A DNA stretch of 55,479 nt. It comes from Bacteroidaceae bacterium. GTDB lineage: Bacteria; Bacteroidota; Bacteroidia; Bacteroidales; Bacteroidaceae. Shown in pieces: positions 6,482 to 23,091 of this stretch (position 1 is the stretch's first letter; every line of letters starts with the position of its first letter). The stretch spans positions 1 through 55,479 of the forward strand of contig JAFWYF010000004.1 in NCBI GenBank assembly GCA_017522785.1. Direction: 5' to 3'. A program made the translations under genes and the position numbers. The notes beneath the pieces were generated by a model. It saw nothing but the letters and a program-made list of their open reading frames with translations, was not told the DNA's origin and did not search any database.

Positions 6482-8932
6482 ATGAAAAAATTTACTTTAC
6501 TGACATATTTCACATTTCTACTGCTCACACTGCAACCAATAGTGGCACAAGAGAACATTGAAATAAGATTTAACAGAACAGATGCATCGAATGCATCTGC
6601 AACAGTTACAGACGGGAATGGCATTGCAATCGAGGGCGCAACAGCGACAATTGCTCTTTCGGGCAGTACATCTATTTGGAAAAGCAATGGAGAACTTGCA
6701 ACATCAACAAATGTTATTTGCCCCGATGTTAATGCAAACACCAACCCAACTATCGAGATGACTGTTACAATTAATGGTCTTGGTAGCAAAAAACTAACAT
6801 CTTTGGGTTTGGACATCCACGCATTAAACAGCAGTGGTAATCATCAGTTAAATGGAAGTAATGAACCCGACCGCCATTGGAACGTAGATGTTAAGGCAAA
6901 TGATACATCATTTGCTTCTTACACAGACTTGGAGATTGCAAGAGGATGTGTAACAGATGGTGTTACACACAAAATGCACAATGCTGAGAATGTAACAGCT
7001 ACAGAGGTTACAGACCCATTGACTCTAAAACTCACAATTGGTAAAGGCAGTAATAACGGTGGTTGCTTCTTTGGCTTGGAGAAAATAGTACTTGGTACAG
7101 GCGAAGAGGGCGAATCTAAACCCGAGACAACTCTTCCAGATGTAGACGAAAATGCAGGCAAGATTTACATTATATCATGGAAAAACACCGGTGGCAACTA
7201 CATTACAGAGAGCGACAACCACAAAATGGTTGTTGATGGCTACAGTGTTACCAAACGTCAATTCTGGCAGTTTATACCATCGGGCAAGGAGAACTGTTTT
7301 TATATACGCAACACCGCTACCAACCGATATATAGGTAGTTGCAATCTTACTCCTGCTTCGGCTTCAAAAATTTATACAACCACAGAGCCTGTAGAATATT
7401 ATGTAGGAAAAACCAGTGCAACAAGTGGTGAAAATGCAAATTGCTGGTATTTCAGTTCCACCGATTGTACCGATTACGACAAAGAGGCAAATGGGCCACG
7501 TGCTCTTAACAAGGACGGAGCATCGAGCGACGTAATTACATGGCAAGCCGGAACAAGCAGAGTTGGTTCATATTGGCAACTGACAGAGACAACTGACCTT
7601 TACGAACTTCGCCCATTTGATGCAGGCGAAGAAATAGGTACAATTGTCGCAAGCTACTATATAAAGAGCAAAAATGGTTCTTACCTTACTATTAATGAGA
7701 ATGCATTGTCTTTAACAGAGCCCGACATTTACAACGATAGCCAAGAATGGTATTTTGTTGGAGTATTAAACAGCAACGGTTGGCAAATTGCATCGGTTGC
7801 AAGCCCTGCAGTTACAGTTGGCTTACAAGAGGAGAATATTATTGTGAGCGAGAGCAATACAAGCAGATGGAAAGTAAAGGCAAGCAAAGAGAATAAAGGC
7901 TATTTCTATTTTGTAAACAAGGACGATGAAACCATTACCCTTTCTGTCGATGGAGAGAGCCTGTTCCAATTCGAAAAGATACGTAGTGCCTATTCACGCG
8001 CACAACAGATATACAACAACCCATGTGGTAGCGCAGGCAACAATTATATTACATCACTGACTGTTGCAGGCGAGGATGTATTGGGCAAACTAACATATAG
8101 CACCGATGCTAAACCATCGAGCTGGCATGTTATTCACAGCAAAGACAAAGCATGCGTTGCTATAGGAAAAGAATTCAACATGGAAGCAACACTCTCATCA
8201 AGCCCGGCAAGCGACCTTCTCGTTAATGCCTATTTCGATTGGAACTGCGACGGGGTATTTGAGACAACTGAGAACTTAACACTTAACGGTCAAAAAGCAA
8301 CATGCTCTGCCACTGTACCAACATGGGCAAAAGAGAAACAGAGCCGTATGCGTATAAGAGTAAACCAAAGCGGACTTGACCTTGCAGAAGACGATGTAGA
8401 GGGCTTTGTATATGACTTTAATATAATTGTTGCCCAGCCACAAACAATGCGCACAGTAACAACAACTGCAAACGAAGGAATTCGTGGTACAACATCCTTA
8501 TCGGCACAAGCAAAAGAGTATGCTTATGGCACAACACTCACTGCAACGGCAACTCCAATAGGAAACAGCAATTTCATTTGCTGGCGCGAGGGAGCAACCG
8601 TTGTATCTACCGAAGCAGAATACACATTCACCGTAGATCATAACATTAAACTTACAGCATATTTCTCACCCAACACCGACGAGGATAGTTATACAGCAAT
8701 AACTGCAGCGACTACCGATGAAGAGATTACAATTGAGCAACAGAACAATACATTAGTAGTTCTGAGTAGTTGCGAGATAAAGAACTTTGCATTATACACA
8801 ATAAACGCTACACTCGTTGCAAAGACAAACAGCAACATATTGAGTACAAGCAGTTTGAGCGAAGGTGTATATATTGCCAGAGTAACAACTGCCAACGGCT
8901 ACAAAAACCTTAAGGTATATATTAAGAAATAA
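6482..8932 (+). CDS. Secreted multidomain protein with T9SS type A sorting tail (GEVED and InlB-like repeat)
   Basis: 816 residues from the ATG at 6482, chosen because it opens a signal peptide (MKKFTLLTYFTFLLLTL, cleavage likely near VAQ, residue 23) and because the earlier ATG lies inside the promoter. Visible parts: a beta-rich N-terminal region (25-210); two stretches with Trp/Gln-rich, ricin-like carbohydrate-binding character (about 225-370 and 385-500); a GEVED-type domain (about 575-650, FDWNCDGVFETTE and DDVEGFVYDFNI); an InlB B-repeat-like domain (657-728); and a C-terminal domain of about 65 residues ending SEGVYIARVTTANGYKNLKV, typical of T9SS type A sorting signals. It is probably exported to the cell surface or medium. 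The sulfatase gene follows after 33 nt, so both may act on the same glycan or glycoprotein. Its substrate is unknown. Confidence 0.8.
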   Translation: MKKFTLLTYFTFLLLTLQPIVAQENIEIRFNRTDASNASATVTDGNGIAIEGATATIALSGSTSIWKSNGELATSTNVICPDVNANTNPTIEMTVTINGLGSKKLTSLGLDIHALNSSGNHQLNGSNEPDRHWNVDVKANDTSFASYTDLEIARGCVTDGVTHKMHNAENVTATEVTDPLTLKLTIGKGSNNGGCFFGLEKIVLGTGEEGESKPETTLPDVDENAGKIYIISWKNTGGNYITESDNHKMVVDGYSVTKRQFWQFIPSGKENCFYIRNTATNRYIGSCNLTPASASKIYTTTEPVEYYVGKTSATSGENANCWYFSSTDCTDYDKEANGPRALNKDGASSDVITWQAGTSRVGSYWQLTETTDLYELRPFDAGEEIGTIVASYYIKSKNGSYLTINENALSLTEPDIYNDSQEWYFVGVLNSNGWQIASVASPAVTVGLQEENIIVSESNTSRWKVKASKENKGYFYFVNKDDETITLSVDGESLFQFEKIRSAYSRAQQIYNNPCGSAGNNYITSLTVAGEDVLGKLTYSTDAKPSSWHVIHSKDKACVAIGKEFNMEATLSSSPASDLLVNAYFDWNCDGVFETTENLTLNGQKATCSATVPTWAKEKQSRMRIRVNQSGLDLAEDDVEGFVYDFNIIVAQPQTMRTVTTTANEGIRGTTSLSAQAKEYAYGTTLTATATPIGNSNFICWREGATVVSTEAEYTFTVDHNIKLTAYFSPNTDEDSYTAITAATTDEEITIEQQNNTLVVLSSCEIKNFALYTINATLVAKTNSNILSTSSLSEGVYIARVTTANGYKNLKVYIKK

Positions 8933-17052: not shown

Positions 17053-17862
17053 ATGGAGATTTTAGGTTACCAATTCTTTCAGAATGCACTTATAGGCAGT
17101 TTACTCGCTTGCTTGGCATGTGCTATCGCAGGGACCTATGCTGTAACTCGTCGTTTGCTATTCATCAGTGGTGGAATTTCACATGCCTCATTTGGAGGTG
17201 TTGGGCTTGGGATGTTTTTGGGCATAAACCCCACTTTGCCAGCATTTATTTTTGCAATTTTATCGGCTTTGGGTGTTCAAAGGCTTGGACGTAGCAAGGA
17301 GATTAGAGAAGATTCTGCAATTGCCGTCTTTTGGGTCTTGGGAATGGCATTGGGAGTTATATTTTGCTTTCTCACTCCAAACTACTCCGGTGAGTTATCG
17401 ACATATCTGTTTGGAAATATATTAGCAATAGACAATAGTGATATTATTTTGCTGGCATGTATATCACTTGCATTAATACTATTCACACTAATTTTCTTTC
17501 GTACCATTTTACTAGTTGCGTTTGACCCTGAGTATGCCATATCACGTAATATCCCGGCACACTTGTTTGAATGTATTATGATGATTTTTATAGCCATAAC
17601 CATAGTGGCAACTCTTCGATTGGTTGGTATAATTCTTGTTATATCGATGCTCACTATCCCACAGATGACAGCTATGATTTTTACAAAAAGTTACAAAAAT
17701 ACGATTATACTATCTGCAATATTCGGTTATTTTGCCTGTATTGTGGGGTTATATATATCATACATAATAGACATTCCATCGGGAGCTTCAATAATAATCT
17801 GCTCTATCTCCATTTATCTTTTATGTATGATAGCGAGGGTTGGCAAAAGGGGTTTAAGATAA
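17053..17862 (+). CDS. Metal ABC transporter permease (ZnuB/TroC type)
   Basis: 269 residues, almost entirely hydrophobic, with about eight transmembrane segments. The segment YAVTRRLLFISGGISHASF is the recognisable ABC-3 family region that contacts the ATPase. The family imports zinc, manganese or iron with a binding protein and an ATPase, neither of which is encoded nearby, so partners must be elsewhere in the genome. It is 13 nt after the His/Cys-rich protein, and a 73-nt gap separates it from the PorW/SprE-like gene. The transported metal cannot be told. Confidence 0.9.
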   Translation: MEILGYQFFQNALIGSLLACLACAIAGTYAVTRRLLFISGGISHASFGGVGLGMFLGINPTLPAFIFAILSALGVQRLGRSKEIREDSAIAVFWVLGMALGVIFCFLTPNYSGELSTYLFGNILAIDNSDIILLACISLALILFTLIFFRTILLVAFDPEYAISRNIPAHLFECIMMIFIAITIVATLRLVGIILVISMLTIPQMTAMIFTKSYKNTIILSAIFGYFACIVGLYISYIIDIPSGASIIICSISIYLLCMIARVGKRGLR

Positions 17863-17935: not shown

Positions 17936-19357
17936 GTGAAACTACATATACGAAACATACTATTCATATCTCTACTGCTTACCATTGGCCTATGCGGATG
18001 TGCTAGTCGCAAGAAGAACACGGCTCAAACACGTATGTATCATGCATTCTTTGCGAAATATAATACATATTACAATGGAAATGTTTCATATAAAAAGGCT
18101 AAAAAAGAGCAGATTAATCAGCACAAAGACAACTATCTGGAACAATTGCCACTGCTCATTGTAAGCAACACAAGCACACGTTCAATTGGTTCTTCGGATT
18201 ACGACCGTGCAATAGAGAAATCGCAAAAGGCTATAAAAAACCACTCTATAAAAAAGAAGCCTATTAGAAAAGCTGGAGAAAAACTATCTGCAAAGAAAAA
18301 AAAGTTCTTTGCACAAAAAGAGTTCAACCCTTTCTTGTGGAAAGCATGGATGATGATGGCAAATTCCTATTTCGAGAAAGGCGAATTCACCGAAGCTGCA
18401 AGTACATACATATACATAACACGATTATATGAGAACGACCCAAAGGTTATGGCAATGGCACGCATAGGCCTAGCAAAGTGTTATACCGAAATGGACTGGT
18501 TGTATGAAGCGGAGGACCTTATTGCGCGAATACGTCGCGACAGTGTGCCCGATGCGCAGGAGCCGGAATTAGCACGCGCACAAGCCAATCTTTTGATAAA
18601 GCAAGAGAGATACAGCGAAGCACTACCTCTTTTGGAAAAAGCCATAAAAAGAAAAGATGCAACATCGCGCGAGAAAGCACGTGAATTCTACCTTATGGGA
18701 CAACTGTATCGCGAACTAGGGGACAACACCGCGGCATTTAAAAGTTTTGGAAAAACAATCTCAAAGAACCCTCCATACGAACTGGAATTCAATGCAAGGA
18801 TAAGACAAACCGAGACTGTAACCAACGAGGACAAGAAAAAGATAATTCGCTCGTTACAACGAATGTTGAAATCGCCAAAGAACGAAGATTACATATCGCA
18901 ACTACACTACGCGATAGGTAACCTGCACATGAGTTCCAAAGACACTATAGAGGCCATTAAATCGTACGAGACAGGTGTTGCGGAGGGTGCTAGCAGTGGA
19001 TACGGCACAGCAATGCTACATCTTTCATTAGCAAAAATCTATTGGGAGCAGGAACGTTTCTCTAAATCGGATGCCAACTACAAGAAGGCTATTAACATGA
19101 TTGACAAAGAGAGCGATGATTACAAACTACACAAACATCGTTCGGATATTCTACCCGACTTAGTAACACACACAGACATTATAGAGGAGAACAGCGAACT
19201 ACTCTATTGGGCATCACTGAGTGAAGAGGAGCTTATACCATTGATTGACAAAAAAATTGAATTTGCAAAGTGGGAAGAAGAGTTACGCAAAAAAACTGAG
19301 AAGAAAGAAGTAAGAGGCCGGAGGTTCTGCCGGCAACGATCTTGCCGCGGCAAGTAA
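17936..19357 (+). CDS. porW: PorW/SprE-like TPR lipoprotein, N-terminal fragment (gene split by frameshift)
   Basis: 473 codons from a GTG start. The N-terminus (VKLHIRNILFISLLLTIGLC then GC) is a lipoprotein signal with lipid-bearing C22. Tetratricopeptide-like helical repeats occupy about 120-430 (for example FLWKAWMMMANSYFEKGEFT and AREFYLMGQLYRELGDNTAA). In T9SS bacteria, PorW/SprE is an outer-membrane-associated lipoprotein needed for type IX secretion. The last residues (VRGRRFCRQRSCRGK) are Arg/Cys-rich, unlike the rest, because the frame has shifted: removing T19311 gives codons for KKEEEAGGSAGNDLAAASN and continues without a stop into the next fragment. It is either a recent pseudogene or a sequence error. 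The symbol rests on pattern recognition and the porX neighbour. Confidence 0.8.
   Translation: MKLHIRNILFISLLLTIGLCGCASRKKNTAQTRMYHAFFAKYNTYYNGNVSYKKAKKEQINQHKDNYLEQLPLLIVSNTSTRSIGSSDYDRAIEKSQKAIKNHSIKKKPIRKAGEKLSAKKKKFFAQKEFNPFLWKAWMMMANSYFEKGEFTEAASTYIYITRLYENDPKVMAMARIGLAKCYTEMDWLYEAEDLIARIRRDSVPDAQEPELARAQANLLIKQERYSEALPLLEKAIKRKDATSREKAREFYLMGQLYRELGDNTAAFKSFGKTISKNPPYELEFNARIRQTETVTNEDKKKIIRSLQRMLKSPKNEDYISQLHYAIGNLHMSSKDTIEAIKSYETGVAEGASSGYGTAMLHLSLAKIYWEQERFSKSDANYKKAINMIDKESDDYKLHKHRSDILPDLVTHTDIIEENSELLYWASLSEEELIPLIDKKIEFAKWEEELRKKTEKKEVRGRRFCRQRSCRGK
19311..19311 (+). other. Probable single-base insertion splitting the PorW/SprE-like gene
   Basis: The sequence reads AAG AAA GAA GTA AGA GGC in the upstream frame. 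Deleting T19311 gives AAG AAA GAA GAA GAG GCC GGA GGT, which joins the upstream frame exactly to the frame of the downstream fragment and yields 941 codons plus stop. In the downstream frame, the stop containing this T (TAA, 19311-19313) is the last stop before the fragment, so a shift must lie here or within the next 45 nt. Confidence 0.7.
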
Positions 19358-19367
19358 TGCTGCCAAT

Positions 19368-20762
19368 ATGACAATTGCGAACAGCAATGAGCAAGAGTTA
19401 TGGTATTTCTATAACCCTCAATTGGTAGCCCAAGGAATAAAAAGTTTCTCTAACACATGGGGAAATAGGACCTTAAAAGATTTTTGGCGATTGAGCAAAG
19501 AGAATATCTCTTTTGCTATGCAAGACAGCATACAGAATGACAGCACCGATATAGCAATATCTAACGACTCTTTGACCGTTGCACTATCTGATTCCATTGC
19601 ATTAGAAGAGATTGAGGAAGATACATTGTCTACAGACCCGACAACGCGAGAATACTACTTGGGAAGAATTCCACACGATGATGAGACAAAAGCCGAGATG
19701 CACAAGAAATTAAGTGATGCCATTTTTAATTCAGCACTTGTCTTTGAGGAGAAACTTGGGGATAAGGAGTTGGCGCTATCATATTGGGAACGACTTGTAA
19801 ATGAGTATCCTGAATACGATAAAATGTCGGACGTATATTATCATCTATATCTATCTTGTTCGCGTTGGGAAGAGAGCGAGAAGGCCGAATTATATCGAAA
19901 CATGCTACTGACAACATATCCCGATAGCACAGTAACAATAAAAATACAAGACCCGGACTTCTTTGAAAGCGTTGCTGTCAAAGAACACAAAGAAGACTCT
20001 ATTTATGTCGAAAGTTACGAACTATTCAAAAAGAAACTTTATGCACAAGTTATAGAGAATAATAGTTATGCAACAAAGAAATATCCCAAGGGGAAACATC
20101 GTGCCCGTTTCATGTTTATAGATGCTCTCTCGAAACTCTATAACGGACAGCAAGATGAAGCTCTAGAGGCAATTGAGAATCTCGCAACAGAATTCTCCGA
20201 GGAGGAGATTACAGCAATGGCGCAAGAGATTTCGACAGGAGTAAAAGAGGGACGCCTGCTCAACAGTGGAATATCGCTATCCATTTGGGAGCGTAAAAGC
20301 GATGGAACAATAAAGGGCGACATGGACAGTGTTCCTGAATTTAGCAGTGAACGCAATGAACCATATTACTTTATTCTTGCATACCCCAACGACTCGTTAG
20401 ACGAAAAACGTCTGTTATTCGAGATTGCCCGTTATAACTTCTCACGATACATGGTGCGTAATTTTAAAATGGAGTTTAACAAGCAGGCGGCAATTACTTT
20501 GTTAGAGATAAAAGAGTTCTTGAACTTTGACGAAGCATTCATTTATAGGAAACGACTATATTCGAATGGAGATATGGCAAGATTACTAGAAGGTATAAAC
20601 GCTTTTATAATATCAAAATCGAACCTTGATTTGTTATTGAATTACTATAGTTTTGATGACTATAGAAAGTTCTACGAGGAGAATCTGCAGAACATCCCCG
20701 AGCCGGAGATAGATGGATATACCCTTGATGAACCCGACTACGAAATTACCAAAGAACAATAA
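19368..20762 (+). CDS. porW: PorW/SprE-like TPR lipoprotein, C-terminal fragment (gene split by frameshift)
   Basis: 464 codons from the first ATG, but the open frame reaches back to 19314 and encodes EAGGSAGNDLAAASNAAN before that Met, a continuation of the preceding fragment. The start of this piece has no signal peptide, consistent with it being the second half of one protein. It contains NEQELWYFYNPQLVAQGIKS and further helical TPR-like repeats (about 130-300). An ATG that overlaps the upstream stop (TAATG at 19355-19359) is in a third frame, so it cannot restart this piece. The fragment ends 11 nt before porX. Confidence 0.8.
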   Translation: MTIANSNEQELWYFYNPQLVAQGIKSFSNTWGNRTLKDFWRLSKENISFAMQDSIQNDSTDIAISNDSLTVALSDSIALEEIEEDTLSTDPTTREYYLGRIPHDDETKAEMHKKLSDAIFNSALVFEEKLGDKELALSYWERLVNEYPEYDKMSDVYYHLYLSCSRWEESEKAELYRNMLLTTYPDSTVTIKIQDPDFFESVAVKEHKEDSIYVESYELFKKKLYAQVIENNSYATKKYPKGKHRARFMFIDALSKLYNGQQDEALEAIENLATEFSEEEITAMAQEISTGVKEGRLLNSGISLSIWERKSDGTIKGDMDSVPEFSSERNEPYYFILAYPNDSLDEKRLLFEIARYNFSRYMVRNFKMEFNKQAAITLLEIKEFLNFDEAFIYRKRLYSNGDMARLLEGINAFIISKSNLDLLLNYYSFDDYRKFYEENLQNIPEPEIDGYTLDEPDYEITKEQ

Positions 20763-20773
20763 AAACAAAACAG

Positions 20774-22324
20774 ATGATATACAAACTGCTTTGGGCCGAT
20801 GATGAGATAGAACTACTGAACGGTCATATAATATTCTTAAAGTCTAAAGGCTACGAGGTTACAACCGTAACAAACGGCTTAGACGCTGTAGAGGCATGCA
20901 AGAACGAGACTTTCGACCTTGTGCTGCTTGACGAAAACATGCCCGGCTTGAGCGGTTTAGAGACACTGATACAGATTAAAGAGATATTGCCTGCAACACC
21001 AATAGTAATGGTTACAAAAAGTGAAGAGGAGGATATTATGGAAGAGGCTATTGGTTCCAAGATTGCCGATTACCTGATAAAGCCTGTGAACCCCAACCAG
21101 ATACTATTGTCTTTAAAAAAGAATATTCACAAGAAAGAAATTGTTACTGAAAAGACAAACAGCGCCTACCAACAGAACTTTGGAAAATTGGGAATGCAAA
21201 TATCCGAGTCCTTAAACATAGAAGATTGGATAGATGTATATAAAAAGATAGTCTACTGGGAATTTGAGCTTGAAAGTGCGGACGACAGCATGCACGAGAT
21301 GTTACAAGCTCAAAAGAGCGAAGCAAATTCAATGTTCGCCCGCTTTATTAAGAAGAATTACATGAATTGGATGGGTAGCGACAGAAGCGAACGTCCAATG
21401 ATGAGCAACGACATATTTCGCGAGCGCATATTTCCACTCCTAGACCGTGGTGAAAAGGTGTTTCTCATTGTAATCGACAATTTTCGTTACGACCAATGGA
21501 AAGTGCTTGCCAATGAAATTGGTGGAATGTTCGCAATTGAAGAGGAGTTATACACAAGTATATTACCAACTGCAACACAATATGCGAGAAATGCAATATT
21601 CTCGGGATTAATGCCATCACAAATAAAGAGTATGTTTCCACATTTGTGGGTAGATGAAGAAGAGGATGAAGGGAAAAATCTTAATGAAGAGGCATTGATA
21701 GAGACCCAGATAGCTCGCTATCGTCGTAAGGACAGTTTCTCGTACAACAAAGTATTAAACTCATCTGCAGCCGATAAATACTTGGATACTATAAACAATT
21801 TGTCGGGAAACAACCTGAATATTTTGGTAATGAACTTTATAGATATACTATCGCATGCCCGAACAGAATCGATGATGGTTAGAGAATTAGCATCGAACGA
21901 GGCGGCATACCGTTCTATTACTCATTCTTGGATACGCCATTCGGCTATTACACGCCTGTTTAAATACCTTGCAGATAGTAACTACACCGTTATAATTACC
22001 ACCGACCACGGAAGTGTTCAGGTAAATAACCCAACAAAAGTTGTAGGCGACAAAAATACAAATACCAATCTTAGATATAAACTTGGCAAAACACTAAACT
22101 ACAACCCCAAAGAGGTATTCGAGGTGAAAGAGCCGGCGAAAGCATTCTTGCCTGCTCCAAACATAAGTACAAGTTATATTTTTGCTACAGGTGAAAACTT
22201 CTTTGCCTATCCCAACAACTACAACTATTATGTATCGTATTACAAGGATACGTTTCAACATGGAGGTATCTCACTTGAGGAGATGCTTATACCAATAATA
22301 ACAATGCGTCCAAGAGGGAAATGA
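20774..22324 (+). CDS. porX: PorX-like response regulator with PglZ phosphatase-like domain
   Basis: 516 residues. The receiver domain (1-120) has the acidic pair D9-D10, phospho-acceptor D53 (LLDENMPG), T81 and K103 (LIKPVNP). A helical linker is followed by a PglZ/alkaline-phosphatase-like domain (about 225-515), with candidate metal and catalytic residues D235 (VIDNFR), T266/T268 (PTATQYARNA), D357 and H361 (IDILSHAR) and D411-H412 (TTDHGSV). PorX works with the kinase PorY and an ECF sigma factor to control T9SS genes in Porphyromonas, and can bind zinc and hydrolyse signalling nucleotides. All key residues are intact, in contrast to the split gene before it. It overlaps tsaE by 4 nt (ATGA). 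Confidence 0.92.
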   Translation: MIYKLLWADDEIELLNGHIIFLKSKGYEVTTVTNGLDAVEACKNETFDLVLLDENMPGLSGLETLIQIKEILPATPIVMVTKSEEEDIMEEAIGSKIADYLIKPVNPNQILLSLKKNIHKKEIVTEKTNSAYQQNFGKLGMQISESLNIEDWIDVYKKIVYWEFELESADDSMHEMLQAQKSEANSMFARFIKKNYMNWMGSDRSERPMMSNDIFRERIFPLLDRGEKVFLIVIDNFRYDQWKVLANEIGGMFAIEEELYTSILPTATQYARNAIFSGLMPSQIKSMFPHLWVDEEEDEGKNLNEEALIETQIARYRRKDSFSYNKVLNSSAADKYLDTINNLSGNNLNILVMNFIDILSHARTESMMVRELASNEAAYRSITHSWIRHSAITRLFKYLADSNYTVIITTDHGSVQVNNPTKVVGDKNTNTNLRYKLGKTLNYNPKEVFEVKEPAKAFLPAPNISTSYIFATGENFFAYPNNYNYYVSYYKDTFQHGGISLEEMLIPIITMRPRGK

Positions 22325-22764: not shown

Positions 22765-23091
22765 ATGAAAATTAACGCAAACGCATCGGGAACAAGAACC
22801 ATTGAGGTTAATGAACAGATGTTTTTAACAGTAAAAAAATATTCTTTATTCGAAAGAATAGCCAACAGTATAGGAATCGTAGACGAAGATATTCTTGAGA
22901 AACTACGTTGCACCGTTCGTTCGTTAATTGCATCGCAAGAGGAGGACTCAAAAGCCCTGCTTGAACTTGCATTAGTGCTATACAACGACAACATGAAGGC
23001 ACTTGGACTTAGCAACCTTATAGCGGCATATAACAGTTGGTTGGTAGAACAACCCACCGAAGAAGAGAAAACAGAAACATGCAATGAATAA
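22765..23091 (+). CDS. Small conserved-looking hypothetical protein
   Basis: 108 residues, no family recognised. It has no signal peptide or membrane segment. The first third (KINANASGTRTIEVNEQMFL) is polar and beta-prone; the rest is helical with an acidic C-terminus (EQPTEEEKTETCNE). It starts 6 nt after tsaE and overlaps the following radical SAM gene by 8 nt, so it is almost certainly translated as part of the operon. Nothing more can be said about function. Confidence 0.8.
   Translation: MKINANASGTRTIEVNEQMFLTVKKYSLFERIANSIGIVDEDILEKLRCTVRSLIASQEEDSKALLELALVLYNDNMKALGLSNLIAAYNSWLVEQPTEEEKTETCNE

What the first reader, a model, noticed from the sequence alone, without database searches (positions are those of the whole stretch)
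17936..20762. PorW/SprE-like gene split by a single-base insertion beside an intact porX
Two adjacent frames encode the two halves of one TPR lipoprotein. Deleting T19311 turns AAG AAA GAA GTA AGA into AAG AAA GAA GAA GAG and joins the frames exactly into 941 codons. Both halves keep good coding character, so the change is recent or a sequence error. If real, type IX secretion or its control may be impaired in this strain, although a T9SS cargo gene and porX are intact.
Basis: partly seen in the sequence, partly recalled or inferred. Interest (0 to 1): 0.75.

Follow-up and report, generated by a model that had tools for sequence, protein, structure and literature searches.

The report
Broken type IX secretion lipoprotein gene
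In this uncultured gut bacterium a gene needed for its protein export machine is cut in two by a frameshift, and a second gene of the same machine is also cut by a stop codon, so the machine is probably switched off in this genome unless both are sequence errors.

Summary
The adjacent frames at 17936-19357 and 19314-20762 are two halves of one PorW/SprE protein (NF052312). It is one whole frame in 22 of 23 matched congeners and in 99 of 100 family genomes over the cut-off. The frame change lies in a variable linker that maps to the Finger Region of Flavobacterium johnsoniae SprE. The upstream product keeps lipobox and TPR array; the downstream half has no evident signal peptide. Both halves keep nearly every invariant residue, so the break is recent or an error; no reads were available. 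New here: porE of the same genome has an in-frame stop. Among 151 compared places of this genome only porW and porE are broken inside. Two congeners carry single stops (G022 porW, G018 porE); Sov is whole in 19 of 19 genus genomes. Ten other T9SS genes looked at are unbroken. Best reading: a recent natural loss of T9SS function, of the kind seen in phage-exposed Flavobacterium columnare. Assembly error is the main rival. Ordinary as a lesion, mildly interesting as a possibly recurrent one.

The parts
17936..19357 (+). upstream half of porW/sprE: GTG start, signal peptide with lipobox, TPR array, then about 15 out-of-frame residues and stop
   Evidence: (NF052312 profile 2-427, 388 bits)
19314..20762 (+). 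open frame of the downstream half of porW/sprE; first ATG at 19368; no evident signal peptide (by eye)
   Evidence: (NF052312 profile 449-716, 216 bits)
19314..19354 (+). stretch open in both frames; the frame change lies at its left edge or within it; corresponds to the start of the SprE Finger Region
   Evidence: falls between SprE residues 441 and 491
20774..22324 (+). porX, response regulator/PglZ domain protein, intact, 516 aa, 11 bases behind the downstream half
   Evidence: NF052313, 827 bits
6398..8932 (+). putative T9SS cargo, 844 aa, C-terminal sorting domain at 8744-8926
   Evidence: TIGR04183 26.7 bits, over cut-off 23; one search scored the protein 20.4, below the cut-off

Best explanation
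This is a recent, real loss-of-function allele of porW in an uncultured gut Bacteroidaceae. Shown: a frameshift in the linker behind the first TPR array ends the open frame about half way. Inferred: the cell makes a truncated outer-membrane lipoprotein that may still dock on Sov but lacks the second half. The second half, if translated from ATG 19368 at all, stays in the cytoplasm because it has no export signal. Without a whole PorW the extended translocon cannot release cargo, and T9SS secretion stops. The nonsense change in porE of the same genome (shown) fits a lineage in which T9SS has just been switched off, before Sov, PorU, PorV, PorKLMN, PorX or the cargo genes have had time to decay.
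For: Single equivalog over two frames. Whole frame in 22 of 23 matched congeners and in 99 of 100 family genomes over the cut-off, among them two more congeners, G378 and G407. No second PorW over the cut-off in the genome. The lesion is not in a homopolymer: the nearest long runs, A7 at 19250 and 19289, lie upstream of the TAA at 19311, so a shift there would not reach the downstream frame. porE is cut by an in-frame TAA into 148 and 516 codons, both parts hitting NF052230. Only porW and porE are broken inside among 151 own places (191 kb) compared with congeners. porW is given, so the fresh evidence is that the one further broken gene is T9SS: 8 of 150, 0.053 by chance. Single lesions in two congeners: G022 porW TAA, G018 porE TGA. 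[quoted passage not shown] PorW links Sov and PorN in P. gingivalis (PMC8754138); PorE is essential for T9SS (PMC7192894); phage-exposed F. columnare isolates carry mutations in gld/spr genes, mostly stops and frameshifts, one with sprE and ompA changes (PMC9233685).
Against: No reads, no second assembly and no isolate of the species could be inspected. The genome is a 40-contig draft, and one indel plus one nonsense change in 191 kb could also come from assembly errors. Both halves keep invariant residues about as well as intact copies (87 of 88 and 92 of 93), which a never-broken gene would also show. Sov is intact in own and all 18 congeners searched, and 13 cargo domains score over the cut-off, so there is no sign of longer decay. 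The concentration of the two congener lesions in porW/porE is not significant alone (0.14). Against the coupling part of the mechanism: PMC10994853 says the PorW C-terminal region that binds the Hub is not required for transport, and the last 112 residues of SprE and its disordered finger are dispensable; but the break here costs far more than these.
Confidence: 0.6

Rival explanations
1. Consensus error or strain mixture in a metagenome assembly: the gene is whole in the living population and the frameshift (and the porE stop) exist only in the assembly.
For: Draft assembly in 40 contigs; the named congeners are all metagenome-assembled genomes; near-perfect preservation of both halves; the other ten T9SS genes looked at are unbroken.
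Against: The lesion is not in a homopolymer; the second lesion is an in-frame stop, not an indel, and both fall in one pathway; the other compared places are clean.
Confidence: 0.33
2. The two halves still work: either by recoding (ribosomal or transcriptional frameshifting) or as a two-chain PorW, because the break lies in the dispensable, disordered Finger Region.
For: The break falls between SprE residues 441 and 491, and residues 445-550 of SprE can be replaced by a short linker without detectable loss of function (PMC10994853 passages).
Against: The downstream half has no evident signal peptide; no homopolymer run of 5 or more G/C or 6 or more A/T lies in the only stretch where a shift would join the frames; the congeners aligned do not use two genes or a frameshift here.
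Confidence: 0.04
3. Ancient split into two genes, functional as such.
For: Both frames are long and well conserved.
Against: No genome over the cut-off in the family census, and none of the congeners aligned, has two normal genes; the tail of the first frame matches nothing; the second part lacks an evident export signal.
Confidence: 0.01

Closest known systems
PorW (Porphyromonas gingivalis) / SprE (Flavobacterium johnsoniae), NCBIfam NF052312
   Same: Lipobox, TPR repeats, both halves match the equivalog in order, porX next door
   Different: Here split over two frames; neither half covers the whole profile
T9SS/gliding mutants of phage-exposed Flavobacterium columnare, one of them with an sprE poly-A length change and an ompA change (PMC9233685, passages)
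   Same: Frameshift or stop in sprE or other T9SS genes
   Different: Those arose in laboratory co-culture; this is a wild gut genome, the break is not in a homopolymer, and no phage pressure is shown
PorE family (NF052230) of the same genome
   Same: Second lesioned T9SS lipoprotein gene
   Different: In-frame nonsense, not a frameshift

Membership tests
PorW/SprE (NF052312) | Score over the curated cut-off of 250 bits | tested here: met
   Upstream half alone 388.2 bits; downstream half alone 216 bits, below the cut-off but on the consecutive part of the profile
PorW/SprE (NF052312) | Lipoprotein signal peptide with lipobox | tested here: met
   N-terminus with LCGC-A aligned with the congeners' lipoboxes; by eye and simple pattern, no predictor run
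PorW/SprE (NF052312) | TPR repeats before and after a linker | tested here: met
   Pfam TPR families in both halves, one weak (28.9 bits) in the second; both halves align to SprE chain 8gl8_I
PorW/SprE (NF052312) | One continuous reading frame | tested here: not met
   Two frames; 99 of 100 family genomes over cut-off have one. So: a PorW gene, broken, not a working PorW
PorW/SprE (NF052312) | Required for T9SS secretion | not testable with these tools
   Known for other species from paper passages
PorX (NF052313) | Receiver plus PglZ domains, score over 300 bits | tested here: met
   827.1 bits, profile 2-513 of 513; Response_reg and PglZ
Complete T9SS | Core genes present and unbroken | tested here: not met
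   Of 12 looked at, 10 unbroken (PorX, P, K, L, M, N, U, V, Q, Sov) and 2 broken (PorW, PorE). PorT, PorZ, PorG, PorF, PorY, SigP, PorD, SkpA and Plug were not looked for

The most novel reading that the evidence does not exclude
In this genus of gut Bacteroidaceae the periplasmic lipoproteins PorW and PorE are recurrent targets of selected loss: T9SS is switched off by fresh null mutations in wild gut populations, perhaps to escape phages that use T9SS-exported surface proteins, while the translocon is kept.
Probability: 0.2. Interest if true: 0.6.

Novelty: new member of a known kind. Interest (0 to 1): 0.36.

Why it matters
If real, it is a natural T9SS null in a wild gut Bacteroidaceae that still holds most of the machine and its cargo, with two lesions in one pathway. 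Together with single lesions in two sister species it makes it testable whether T9SS is switched off by selection in animal guts, as happens to Flavobacterium columnare under phage in the laboratory. If it is an assembly error, it only warns that the gene should not be annotated as two proteins.

Tried and rejected
Programmed frameshifting: rejected as unlikely. The only stretch where a shift would join the frames has no long run, and the aligned congeners need none. Slippage at the A7 runs (19250, 19289): rejected, because the downstream frame meets TAA at 19311. A second PorW elsewhere: none over the cut-off. General decay or poor sequence of the genome: not seen in the other compared places.

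Rows dropped from the census: stops in the last residues (L050:2005, L055:11317, L064:622), and short or antisense reference frames that are not genes (L049:11068, L051:423, L058:19346, L059:16989, three short frames opposite Sov in L064). An L055:6397 row with 10 stops appeared only in the earlier run with untrimmed reference frames. Of the 151 places, 3 look like antisense artefacts themselves, so about 148 are real genes. In G022, multi-frame rows that look like the tandem FKBP genes were dropped. The first census filter missed porW itself and was corrected. My first count 'all congeners whole' was wrong for G022 and was corrected after looking at its N-terminus. One cargo-domain match with a TAG inside (C19:6972) only runs past its own stop. 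Stops reported inside matches of other-family genomes (G030, G040) were not pursued; one search lists G030 as one unbroken frame of 890 codons.

The census cannot see the out-of-frame sorting domain of the GH84 gene (see noticed), because the closest reference, G009, has it out of frame too. Literature: PorW + frameshift + natural gave 0 papers. A search on T9SS with pseudogene or loss gave 17, 12 listed, none on this by title or abstract start. No structure was predicted.

Full report
What is there. The window lies on contig C25 of a 2.10 Mb, 40-contig draft with 98.64% completeness. The three closest named records are metagenome-assembled 'Bacteroidaceae bacterium' genomes from water buffalo cecum, sheep rectum and roe deer cecum. 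The gene order is metal ABC permease (17053-17862), porW in two frames, porX (20774-22324), then tsaE and a YgiQ-type radical SAM gene. The closest congener, G009, has permease, porW and porX in the same order with porW in one frame.

The split. The upstream frame (GTG 17936) stops at 19355-19357. The downstream frame is open from just after a TAA at 19311-19313 to 20760-20762, and its first ATG is 19368. The two products hit NCBIfam NF052312 in consecutive parts, 2-427 and 449-716. Aligned apart to 23 congeners, the homology passes from one frame to the other in a Lys/Glu-rich then Gly/Ala-rich linker that varies among species. Comparison therefore fixes a short interval, not a base.

Base rate. 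Of 24 same-genus genomes, 23 match the downstream half, each in a long open frame; G015 (75% complete) has no match. Inspection of the N-termini showed one exception: G022 has an in-frame TAA soon after the lipobox, so 22 of 23 are whole. In the family, 100 of 131 genomes score over the cut-off; 99 have one unbroken frame of 907 codons or more (two further congeners, G378 and G407, among them) and only this genome is split. At order level 270 of 295 score over the cut-off.

Age. Of the gap-free columns invariant in the 23 congeners, the two halves keep 87 of 88 and 92 of 93. Congeners treated the same way keep 0.94-1.0, apart from the 5'-broken G022 at 0.89 in the first half. The break is recent or is not real.

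Position in the protein. The halves align to SprE of F. johnsoniae (8gl8_I): query 13-460 with SprE 12-441, and the downstream half from its residue 10 with SprE 491-745. The break thus falls where SprE has its Finger Region. The passages I read (PMC10994853) say that residues E445-T550 can be replaced and the last 112 removed without detectable effect, that SprE is nevertheless essential for type 9 secretion, and that N-terminal parts of SprE contact SprA. Passages of PMC8754138 give PorW as the link between Sov and PorN in P. gingivalis, while PMC10994853 notes that the Hub-binding C-terminal region is not required for transport. Inference: the truncated lipoprotein may still dock on Sov but lacks the second half of the scaffold, which has no way out of the cytoplasm. 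Loss of translation of the second half might also lower porX expression by polarity; untested.

A second lesion. I compared the held part of the own genome (412 kb of 2.10 Mb) with proteins from 1.82 Mb of four congeners (G007, G009, G020, G024). This gave 151 places with a reference of at least 150 aa, 191 kb; 3 of these look like antisense artefacts. Two places are interrupted inside: porW, and a gene at G000:C30:1659-3653 (L046) cut by an in-frame TAA into 148 and 516 codons. Both parts hit NF052230 T9SS_PorE. With NF052230, 23 of the 25 genus genomes (own and 24) score over the cut-off; G012 and G024, both incomplete, do not. Own has one TAA, G018 one TGA, 21 none. The G018 stop stands at another place, where the other copies seen have tryptophan. 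PorE is reported essential for T9SS in P. gingivalis, with a TPR domain at residues 25-149 (PMC7192894, passages), so the own PorE would end at about the end of its TPR domain.

How much this means. The held stretches were chosen around T9SS genes, and porW was given. Among the other 150 places, 8 are T9SS core genes (porX, E, P, K, L, M, U, V), so the chance that the one further broken gene is T9SS is 0.053. In congeners the two lesions fall in porW/porE. None falls in Sov (18 of 18 congeners whole, own too) or in the other compared genes on the G018 and G022 contigs (41 places in all, 2 of them the broken genes). The chance of that under equal rates is 0.14. Suggestive, not proof.

State of the rest of T9SS. 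Unbroken: PorX, PorM, Sov, 2469 codons, PorU, PorP, PorK, PorN, PorV, PorL, PorQ. The TIGR04183 search gave 17 matches at E 0.01 or better, 13 over the cut-off. One of these 13 is the GH84 gene whose sorting domain is out of frame with the enzyme. PorT, PorZ, PorG, PorF, PorY, SigP, PorD, SkpA and Plug were not looked for.

Why a cell would do this. Passages of PMC9233685 report that nearly all phage-exposed F. columnare isolates sequenced had mutations in gliding/T9SS genes, mostly premature stops and frameshifts, among them one isolate with ompA and sprE changes, and that controls without phage had none in gliding genes. A fresh T9SS null in a gut population could be such an escape mutant. 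Nothing here shows phage pressure.

Verdict. Error remains at about a third, because no reads could be seen.

Noticed in passing
L046:1659-3653 (G000:C30:1659-3653): porE (NF052230) of the same genome is cut by an in-frame TAA at C30:2103 into 148 and 516 codons; 21 of 22 congeners over the cut-off have it whole.
   Followed up: yes
L185 (G018:C21:36900-39100) and L016 (G022:C114): Two sister species each carry one in-frame stop, G018 in porE and G022 early in porW; no other compared gene on those contigs is broken. G018 Sov is whole; G022 Sov was not among the genomes searched.
   Followed up: partly
L047:13501-16369 (G000:C30:33501-36369): A GH84-type NAGidase gene has its T9SS sorting domain out of frame behind an A12 run, the only A/T run of 10 or more in the 412 kb held. 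G009 has an A12 run at the same place with the domain in yet another frame; G001 has A11 and G006 A9 with the domain in frame. Of 17 loci looked at by eye: 8 in frame, 2 out of frame, 6 without a visible domain, 1 cut by a contig end. It could be a slippage or phase-variation switch between cargo with and without the sorting signal, or a homopolymer error.
   Followed up: partly
window 22765-23091: A 108-aa reading frame between tsaE and the radical SAM gene matches no Pfam or NCBIfam family at E 0.001.
   Followed up: no
L075:12861 (G009:C4): An A14 run in the closest congener; its place relative to genes was not examined.
   Followed up: no
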